This document shows positions 49-19,448 of a stretch of DNA of 64,000 nt, piece after piece. Within the stretch, counting starts at the first letter, position 1; the number at the start of each line of letters is the position of its first letter. The stretch lies in the NCBI GenBank assembly GCA_020072655.1, contig JAIQGH010000030.1, positions 1-64,000 on the forward strand, read 5' to 3'. The notes beneath the pieces were generated by a model. That model did not search any database and was not told the origin of the DNA. It saw only the letters and a list, made by a program, of their open reading frames with translations. The position numbers were made by a program, and so were the translations under genes. The DNA comes from Terriglobia bacterium (GTDB lineage Bacteria > Acidobacteriota > Terriglobia > UBA7540).

Positions 49-77
49 GTAGAGACGCCCCGCCGGGGCGTCTCTAC
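49..77. repeat. 29-bp perfect palindrome, copy 1
   Basis: Two 13-base arms (GTAGAGACGCCCC and its exact reverse complement) are separated by GCC. An identical 29-base copy lies at 18413-18441 inside a transpeptidase gene. It is a REP-like dispersed palindrome. Here it lies in the non-coding stretch before the first gene, where it could also act as a hairpin in RNA. Confidence 0.85.
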
Positions 78-18259: not shown

Positions 18260-19195
18260 TTGCGTCAAATAATCGCCATCCTGGCAGTGGCAGCGTTTTG
18301 GATTTTGGGTTTCGATCTTCTCGGCGCCGTAGTCTCCACGACCGCTCCCGCCCGCACTAAGTCCAAAAGCACGGGATCCACAATTGCTTCCTCGCCCTCG
18401 CGGGCCGCGGCGGTAGAGACGCCCCGCCGGGGCGTCTCTACAAGGGCGCGGACCTCGTCCGCCAAAAGAAAGCGGGCGAGCTCACGCGCGCGCCGGCGAC
18501 GGCCCAGCCCGTGGCGGATCAGTTCCTATAGCGATCCCGCCGCCCATGACAATCCCGCGAGTGAGGACCGGATCGTGCGCGAGGCGGCGATTGATGCCCT
18601 CGGGCGGTGGAATGGCAGCGTCGTGGTCGTCGATCCAAACTCGGGCCGGATTCTCACGATTGTCAACCAGCCTTTGGCGTTCGCGAGCGGCTTCACGCCC
18701 TGCTCGAACTTCAAGCCCGTCGTGGCGCTGGCGGCGCTCAAGGAAGGGGTGATCACCTCGGACACCAAGCTGCGGGTCGGCCGCCGTCTGCGCATGGACC
18801 TGACCGAAGCCTTGGCCCATTCGAATAATCTCTTCTTTTCCAAGCTGGGCCAGCAATTGGGTTTCGACCGGGTGGCCGAATACGCGCACCAGTTCGGACT
18901 GGGTGAAAAGGCCGGTTACAACATCCCCGAGGAGAGCCCCGGCAAGTTTCCCGAAGTTGCGCCGAAAGAAGGCGGTGTGGGGCTCCTGTCGAGCTACGGG
19001 CGTAGCATTGAGGTCACGCCACTGCAGATGGCCGCCCTCATATCCGCCATCGCCAACGGCGGCACGCTCTACTACCTGCAATATCCGCGCAGCGCAGAGG
19101 AACTCGCAACTGGACGGCCTCGAGGAATATGTTGCGCACGTGAAGGAAGGACTCGCCGCTGCGGTGCTGTACGGGACGGGGCGTCTGGCCTATGA
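18260..19195 (+). CDS. Penicillin-binding transpeptidase, 5' part (frameshifted)
   Basis: It starts with TTG at 18260 after a strong AAGGAGG at 18241. An N-terminal membrane anchor (residues about 4-25) is followed by a basic linker rich in Ser/Arg (about 30-85) that is partly encoded by a palindromic repeat. The transpeptidase domain then begins: active-site serine motif SNFK (S149-K152) and second motif SNN (188-190). The family-typical RSIEVTPLQMAALISAIANGG split over two motifs is present. The frame is lost near 19106-19110; the conserved KTGT motif lies in the next frame. No dimerisation/pedestal domain is present, so it is a compact penicillin-binding protein that cross-links peptidoglycan if intact. 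Confidence 0.82.
   Translation: MRQIIAILAVAAFWILGFDLLGAVVSTTAPARTKSKSTGSTIASSPSRAAAVETPRRGVSTRARTSSAKRKRASSRARRRRPSPWRISSYSDPAAHDNPASEDRIVREAAIDALGRWNGSVVVVDPNSGRILTIVNQPLAFASGFTPCSNFKPVVALAALKEGVITSDTKLRVGRRLRMDLTEALAHSNNLFFSKLGQQLGFDRVAEYAHQFGLGEKAGYNIPEESPGKFPEVAPKEGGVGLLSSYGRSIEVTPLQMAALISAIANGGTLYYLQYPRSAEELATGRPRGICCAREGRTRRCGAVRDGASGL
18413..18441. repeat. 29-bp perfect palindrome inside a gene, copy 2
   Basis: It is identical over 29 bases to the copy at 49-77. Here it is read in frame as VETPRRGVST within the basic linker of the transpeptidase. It looks like a REP-type element tolerated because the linker is unstructured. Confidence 0.85.
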
Positions 19196-19448
19196 CCCCG
19201 ACGTGCAGATCTACGGCAAGACAGGAACGTGCAGCGAGGATGGCGCGCGCCTGGGCTGGTTCGTCTCCTACGCGACGGAACCCCAACCCAAATACGTCGT
19301 CGTGGTCTTGCTGCGCGGCGGGCGCATGATGTTCGGCCCTCACGCCGCGGAAATTGCCGGCCGCCTCTACCACAACCTTCGCCTGCGCGAACAACCCCCG
19401 GCGCAGGCCAGCACTCCTTTGCCCATGCCTCTCGGCATCGCTCGCTGA
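19110..19448 (+). CDS. Penicillin-binding transpeptidase, 3' part (frameshifted)
   Basis: This is the continuation of the transpeptidase in another frame. It starts at LDGLEEYVAHVKEGL and carries the third active-site motif KTGT in VQIYGKTGTCSED, then LGWFVSYA and YVVVVLLRGG of the C-terminal sheet. Removing one A near 19109 joins it to the 5' part as EELALDGLEEY, so a one-base insertion (biological or assembly) explains the break. Coordinates of the left end are estimated from that reading. Confidence 0.78.
   Translation: MDGLEEYVAHVKEGLAAAVLYGTGRLAYDPDVQIYGKTGTCSEDGARLGWFVSYATEPQPKYVVVVLLRGGRMMFGPHAAEIAGRLYHNLRLREQPPAQASTPLPMPLGIAR

What the first reader, a model, noticed from the sequence alone, without database searches (positions are those of the whole stretch)
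18413..18441. Palindromic repeat recruited into a coding sequence
A 29-bp perfect palindrome identical to one at 49-77 is inside the transpeptidase linker and read in frame. Selection seems to tolerate REP-like insertion in unstructured linkers. The RNA hairpin could also slow translation between the membrane anchor and the catalytic domain.
Basis: seen in the sequence. Interest (0 to 1): 0.5.

Follow-up and report, generated by a model that had tools for sequence, protein, structure and literature searches.

The report
REP palindrome inside a transpeptidase gene
A 29-letter mobile DNA palindrome of an already described kind, associated with an unusual transposase in many bacterial phyla, lies in the flexible linker of a cell-wall enzyme gene and is read in frame; the case is neat, but the kind of element and this habit are known.

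Summary
In detail: GTAGAGACGCCCCG-C-CGGGGCGTCTCTAC lies at 18413-18441, identical to 49-77, read in frame as VETPRRGVST between membrane anchor and transpeptidase domain. The own genome has 9 copies with unrelated flanks. None of 26 aligned orthologues has it. It is a symmetric "double-foot" REP (GTAG at one end, CTAC at the other), a type published for TnpA_REP subclass 2.4 (PMC6006769). Genes of that type carry or adjoin this palindrome in other phyla and in genome G009 of the window's family; none was found in the window's genome. Hence a new member of a known kind: probably an orphan copy in a permissive linker. Cautions: several palindrome-rich genomes lack a clear transposase hit; 29 is not a multiple of 3, so a nearby indel must have kept the frame; the gene has a later apparent frameshift, so an intact product is unproven; translation slowing is untested. 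Elsewhere copies supply a gene's TAG stop (4 of 9 here) and lie in frame past the portal domain of four phage proteins.

The parts
18413..18441 (.). 29-bp symmetric (double-foot) REP palindrome, read in frame as VETPRRGVST
49..77 (.). Second identical copy, at the start of the contig and upstream of the ORF at 213
18260..19195 (+). Transpeptidase ORF (TTG start, 311 aa open frame): N-terminal anchor, linker and first part of PF00905
   Evidence: 60 of 61 genomes have a match to the query, the weaker ones being other penicillin-binding proteins by their size
18332..18613 (+). Length-variable linker between anchor and PF00905 match, holding the palindrome
18903..19448 (+). Frame that carries the rest of the transpeptidase (KTG part) after the apparent frameshift

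Best explanation
The palindrome is one copy of a non-autonomous, symmetric 'double-foot' REP (GTAG at the 5' end of both strands). It belongs to a REP family that, by its association and by the literature, is moved as single-stranded DNA by TnpA_REP (HuH/Y1) transposases of the type published as subclass 2.4. One copy inserted into the poorly conserved linker of a transpeptidase gene. It survived there because the linker tolerates length change, because the palindrome is open in two of its three frames, and because a nearby small indel restored the frame (29 = 3n+2). No such transposase is found in the window's genome, so its copies are probably orphans of an earlier wave; the relative G009 still has the gene with copies before, inside and after it, although the gene matches in two frames there. 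Shown: identity and copies, absence in orthologues, covarying stem, association with the transposase in other genomes and in one member of the family. Inferred: mobilisation in trans, exact insertion of the unit, order of events, tolerance of the protein. Translation slowing is neither needed nor shown.
For: Nine copies in the own genome, exact unit from GTAG to CTAC, unrelated flanks; reversed-pattern control 0. Same outer arms in 6 of 61 relatives counting the own genome, 0 in the one other genome of the genus. Of 260 copies with distinct flanks, 193 are 28 bp and 54 are 29 bp although the pattern allowed 23-35. The five inner pairs covary (70-97% Watson-Crick; shuffles 28-69%). Of 35 different subclass-2.4-like genes fetched, 14 have the GTAGAGAC palindrome inside (10) or within 70 bp (4), and 3 others have a GTAGGGRC double foot inside. 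The label is clustered on the tree: 5 changes against 11.2 shuffled, 0 of 500 as low. G009, same family: copies 98 bp upstream, inside (degenerate) and 22 bp downstream of such a gene. The motif is in none of 29 fetched orthologue loci, 26 of which were aligned. Published: subclass 2.4 has double-foot REPs and REPs inserted in frame in its own genes (PMC6006769, section 13).
Against: No subclass-2.4-like gene in the window's genome (96% complete): best hit E 9.9e-4, a Y1 gene of another kind. Presence of gene and palindrome do not go together genome by genome: of the 6 palindrome carriers among 61 relatives only G009 has a clear hit (E below 1e-20) and G017 a partial one (2.8e-19), while 11 of the 55 others have a clear hit and no palindrome. 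Of 16 named carriers 5 lack a clear hit, among them three with 271, 210 and 154 copies. The association is not one clade: 5 changes, no bootstrap tree with one. No clean empty site was found, so exact insertion of the unit is inferred; at the window locus the G001 gap is 48 nt, more than the element.
Confidence: 0.85

Rival explanations
1. The insertion sits in a gene that is already dead or dying, so its in-frame reading is accidental rather than tolerated.
For: Apparent frameshift near 19090-19115 against G001 separates the KTG part from the rest; the residue after the catalytic serine is N in the window and T in the other orthologues.
Against: Only 1 of 55 columns that are at least 90% conserved in the other 25 orthologues deviates (G001 0; 15 of the 25 deviate in 1 to 9 columns), and synonymous codon differences to G001 exceed non-synonymous ones on both sides of the frameshift (44 vs 29 and 25 vs 12, not corrected for sites). 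mnmE of the same genome also seems to change frame near its end, which hints at assembly errors.
Confidence: 0.3
2. The hairpin was kept because it acts in the mRNA, slowing ribosomes between anchor and catalytic domain.
For: The 89-nt region folds at -48.3 kcal/mol, z -3.07; 1 of 200 shuffles folds as well.
Against: In none of the 26 aligned orthologues; the same palindrome lies in unrelated genes and between genes, so the fold belongs to the element, not to this gene.
Confidence: 0.04
3. The palindrome is moved by a Y1 transposase of another subclass, for instance one of the six PF01797 genes that this genome does hold.
For: Six PF01797 genes in G000, three of them near canonical GTAG hairpins; three named genomes with 154-271 copies lack a clear subclass-2.4 hit.
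Against: Those hairpins have GTAG outside the stem and other stems; no intact palindrome lies in the six loci, only one degenerate copy about 740 bp from L015. In other genomes the palindrome sits in or beside subclass-2.4-like genes.
Confidence: 0.1
4. Ancestral coding sequence or a chance palindrome.
For: It is open in the reading frame.
Against: 0 in 100 shuffles, 9 genomic copies, in none of the aligned orthologues.
Confidence: 0.01

Closest known systems
Double-foot REP sequences of TnpA_REP subclass 2.4 (Quentin et al. 2018, PMC6006769; section 13 and passages read)
   Same: 5' GTAG and 3' CTAC, long palindrome, Cyanobacteria, Bacteroidetes and other phyla, in-frame insertion in the transposase's own genes.
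   Different: The window's genome lacks a detectable transposase of this type; the target here is a transpeptidase linker. Whether that paper lists this exact sequence could not be seen (figures and supplements not held).
GTAG- and CGTC-tagged REPs, intragenic REPs (Di Nocera et al. 2013, PMC3733652; Results and the first of two parts of the Discussion read)
   Same: Small GTAG palindromes, copies inside ORFs, termini that supply TAG stop codons, GT pairs in stems, linker tolerance proposed.
   Different: Those REPs are described with an unpaired GTAG at one end; here GTAG is paired with CTAC.
Rickettsia palindromic elements (RPE; as mentioned in PMC3733652, otherwise recalled)
   Same: Palindromic repeat translated in frame inside proteins.
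   Different: RPE-4 and RPE-6 are classed there with CGTC repeats, which have no associated transposase.
Small dispersed repeats of cyanobacteria (Elhai et al. 2008; recalled only, not read)
   Same: Very small mobile repeats in cyanobacteria.
   Different: Sequence identity with this family not checked.

Membership tests
[quoted passage not shown]
   definition
Double-foot REP of TnpA_REP subclass 2.4 | Base-paired stem conserved as structure | tested here: met
   inner five pairs covary; the outer nine were fixed by the search pattern and say nothing
Double-foot REP of TnpA_REP subclass 2.4 | Dispersed multi-copy unit with fixed boundaries | tested here: met
   9 copies in own genome, low for a REP; 60 in an acidobacterial and up to 271 in a cyanobacterial genome
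Double-foot REP of TnpA_REP subclass 2.4 | Cognate subclass 2.4 gene in the same genome | tested here: not met
   none in G000, 96% complete; in G009 of the same family present with copies before, inside and after, the gene matching in two frames
Double-foot REP of TnpA_REP subclass 2.4 | REP copies in frame inside the transposase gene between HuH and Y motifs | tested here: met
   in other genomes carrying the same palindrome; subclass assigned here by motifs and profile, Pfam Y1_Tnp scores are weak or absent
Double-foot REP of TnpA_REP subclass 2.4 | Processing by the transposase as single-stranded DNA | not testable with these tools
   needs biochemistry
Canonical GTAG REP | Unpaired GTAG at one end of the hairpin | tested here: not met
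   GTAG is paired with CTAC in both window copies
IS or MITE with target duplication | Direct repeats flanking the insert | tested here: inconclusive
   258 copies: 1-3 bp as in shuffles (52 vs 48, 16 vs 16, 5 vs 6), 4 bp 7 vs 1.6; of the six such cases shown two are self-complementary and two are near-duplicates
Rickettsia palindromic element | Membership in the RPE sequence families | not tested
   no RPE sequences were compared

The most novel reading that the evidence does not exclude
This double-foot REP family is built to live in and at genes: the palindrome is open in two frames (VET..SL and RDA..VST) and gives an amber stop in the third, so it can add a short peptide or a new gene end. 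It repeatedly enters inter-domain linkers, including the segment after the portal domain of Mu-like phages, so that phages may carry REPs between hosts without the transposase gene.
Probability: 0.15. Interest if true: 0.6.

Novelty: new member of a known kind. Interest (0 to 1): 0.33.

Why it matters
It ties an oddity in one gene to a named transposase-repeat system, shows a bacterial family in which one member has the transposase gene beside the repeats and another only the repeats, and gives further examples (stop-codon supply, linker insertion, phage portal genes) of how a tiny repeat can change protein ends and linkers. The kind and the habit are in print; the instance and the phage cases are additions as far as my searches reach.

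Tried and rejected
Chance palindrome: rejected by shuffles. Ancestral coding: rejected by the orthologue alignment. Association with the six PF01797 genes of the own genome: not supported; PF01797 scores the relevant transposases weakly or not at all, so the search was repeated with an alignment of eight genes. Literature search for the outer arm as a string: 20 of 143 listed papers seen, 3 of 3, 12 of 30; none of those seen is about this repeat, and only papers under open licences are held.

Empty sites: phage contigs with near-identical flanks gave only filled sites; one pair of phage contigs differs by the element but diverges at the junction; a Planktothrix species comparison with about 1.6 Mb of one genome gave shared or diverged sites and no clean one. 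Target preference: T at position -1 in 46% against 27% background, no strong CT signal. Frame statistics: of 520 element ends, an upstream frame open for at least 120 codons ends in the element's TAG in 38 and reads into it in 31 (GTA frame) or 16 (GT-AGA frame), against 61-68 expected for each at random sites of the same loci, so copies avoid gene interiors; open frames were not all checked as genes. Structure prediction was not run. Rows dropped: three orthologue loci (L038, L043, L044) were left out of the alignment but are covered by the motif scan; six duplicates and two fragments (L471 of G017, L507 of G074) were left out of the 35 genes; further matches were not fetched.

Full report
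What is there. The 29-mer GTAGAGACGCCCCG-C-CGGGGCGTCTCTAC occurs at 18413-18441 and 49-77 and nowhere else in the window with up to 3 mismatches; 100 shuffles give none. It is read as VETPRRGVST in the ORF from 18260, between a hydrophobic N-terminal stretch (read from the sequence) and the transpeptidase domain PF00905, whose match starts at residue 119.

Copies. The own genome (4.36 Mb, 209 contigs) has 9 copies of the form GTAGAGACG-N-CGTCTCTAC and none of the reversed control pattern. Each copy starts at GTAG and ends at CTAC, and the flanks are unrelated. In relatives, 6 of 61 genomes counting the own genome hold the pattern; the one other genome of the genus (88% complete) has none, and G009 of the same family has 25.

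Orthologues. 60 of 61 genomes have a match to the transpeptidase query; the weaker matches are longer frames, taken as other penicillin-binding proteins. Of 29 fetched orthologue loci none has the motif; 26 were aligned and the linker varies in length. Against G001 the alignment puts a 48-nt gap across the element (and a 3-nt gap the other way upstream), more than the 29-bp unit; since 29 is not a multiple of 3 a further change must have kept the frame (the linker alignment itself is uncertain).

A problem with the gene. Near 19090-19115 the window lacks 26 nt relative to G001 and the rest of the domain continues in another frame. In 55 columns conserved in at least 90% of the other 25 orthologues, the window deviates once (T to N after the catalytic serine) and G001 never; 15 of the 25 deviate in 1 to 9. 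Synonymous codon differences to G001 are 44 against 29 non-synonymous before and 25 against 12 after the break, uncorrected. This fits a gene under constraint until recently, or an assembly error; mnmE of the same genome also seems to change frame near its end.

Family across bacteria. Copy numbers in 16 of these genomes run from 1 to 271, control 0. Pooled, 260 copies with distinct flanks are 28 bp (193) or 29 bp (54), with 13 of other lengths. The inner five pairs covary strongly; the outer nine are fixed by the search itself.

The transposase. Reading frames through the palindrome showed four genes with HuH and Y motifs (recognised by eye; Pfam Y1_Tnp support is weak) that carry the palindrome in frame after the HuH motif. 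A profile from these four finds eight such genes among the 117 loci, the four seeds included; six have the palindrome inside the open frame and two within 48 bp; it finds none in the viral loci. With a wider set of 35 different genes, 14 have it inside (10) or within 70 bp (4), 3 others have a GTAGGGRC palindrome inside, and 18 have neither nearby. On a tree of the 35 the 14 fall in two groups of 6 and 13 rows; the 5 other rows in these groups come from genomes that do hold the palindrome. The association needs 5 changes against 11.2 in shuffles, so it is clustered but not one clade. In relatives, G009 has such a gene with copies 98 bp upstream, inside (degenerate) and 22 bp downstream, the gene matching in two frames; 11 relatives with clear hits and no GTAGAGACG copies (G003, G004, G018, G023, G025, G027, G034, G036, G041, G052, G056) lie outside the two groups.

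Against a simple pairing. The window's genome has no such gene, nor have G008, G010 and G016, which hold one copy each; G017 with two copies has only a partial match. Eleven of 16 named carriers have a clear hit (E below 1e-20) and five do not, among them the genomes with 271, 210 and 154 copies. Either repeats outlive their transposase, or the profile is too narrow, or another Y1 protein can serve.

Comparison with print. Quentin et al. 2018 (PMC6006769; passages, section 13) describe this type: TnpA_REP subclass 2.4, Cyanobacteria, Bacteroidetes and various phyla, double-foot REPs with GT[AG]G and C[TC]AC ends, and REPs inserted in frame within the transposase genes. Di Nocera et al. 2013 (PMC3733652; Results, half of the Discussion) describe intragenic REPs, possible linker tolerance and TAG stops from GTAG ends. 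Corneloup et al. 2021 (PMC8266576; abstract, two sections and passages) show cleavage of REPs at CT or CA by other groups of these enzymes. So the kind is known; the instance is new as far as my searches reach.

Side results. Four of 9 copies in the own genome supply the TAG stop of a gene: mnmE, a 2-hydroxyacid dehydrogenase, an amino acid permease and a methyltransferase. In G017 one copy ends two convergent genes, MurJ and MnmE, at once. One search lists 40 frames that run through a palindrome with at least 60 codons on both sides (the window's and four transposases among them). I tested 17, chosen by eye, against Pfam (element positions): 13 have a match, and in 11 the element lies outside the matched stretches: 7 to 58 residues past Portal_Mu in four phage proteins, in a phage capsid, a tape-measure protein, a winged-helix/TPR protein of G009, RecG (between two domains), an HlyD-like, an FHA and a Por-secretion protein. 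In two it lies inside a match: a glycoside hydrolase (L103) and a Mur-ligase-type FolC-like protein (L089).

Verdict. Probably an orphan double-foot REP in a permissive linker. Tolerance is plausible; recruitment and translational effect are not shown.

Noticed in passing
window 19090-19115: Apparent frameshift in the transpeptidase gene: 26 nt fewer than in G001, with the KTG part in another frame.
   Followed up: partly
L001, L003, L006, L007 (own genome): The palindrome's TAG is the stop codon of the upstream gene in 4 of 9 copies.
   Followed up: yes
L046 1501-1529 (G017): One palindrome between convergent MurJ and MnmE genes gives both their stop codons; the mnmE site is shared with the own genome (L001) but the inner stem differs.
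   Followed up: partly
L322, L320, L264, L288 (IMG/VR contigs): In-frame palindromes 7 to 58 residues past the Portal_Mu domain in four phage portal proteins; inner stems differ, and L288 repeats the encoded peptide in degenerate tandem copies.
   Followed up: partly
L506 2107-2974 (Calothrix sp. NIES-4105): Array of eight identical palindromes about 120 bp apart downstream of a subclass-2.4-like gene.
   Followed up: no
L508, L514, L467: A sister double-foot family with GTAGGGRC arms inside other transposases of the same type.
   Followed up: partly
L015 2447 (own genome): Degenerate copy of the palindrome about 740 bp from a weak PF01797 match.
   Followed up: partly
genomes of L063, L080, L061 (G069, G065, G070): Cyanobacteria with 271, 210 and 154 copies but no clear subclass-2.4-like gene in the A1 search.
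   Followed up: no
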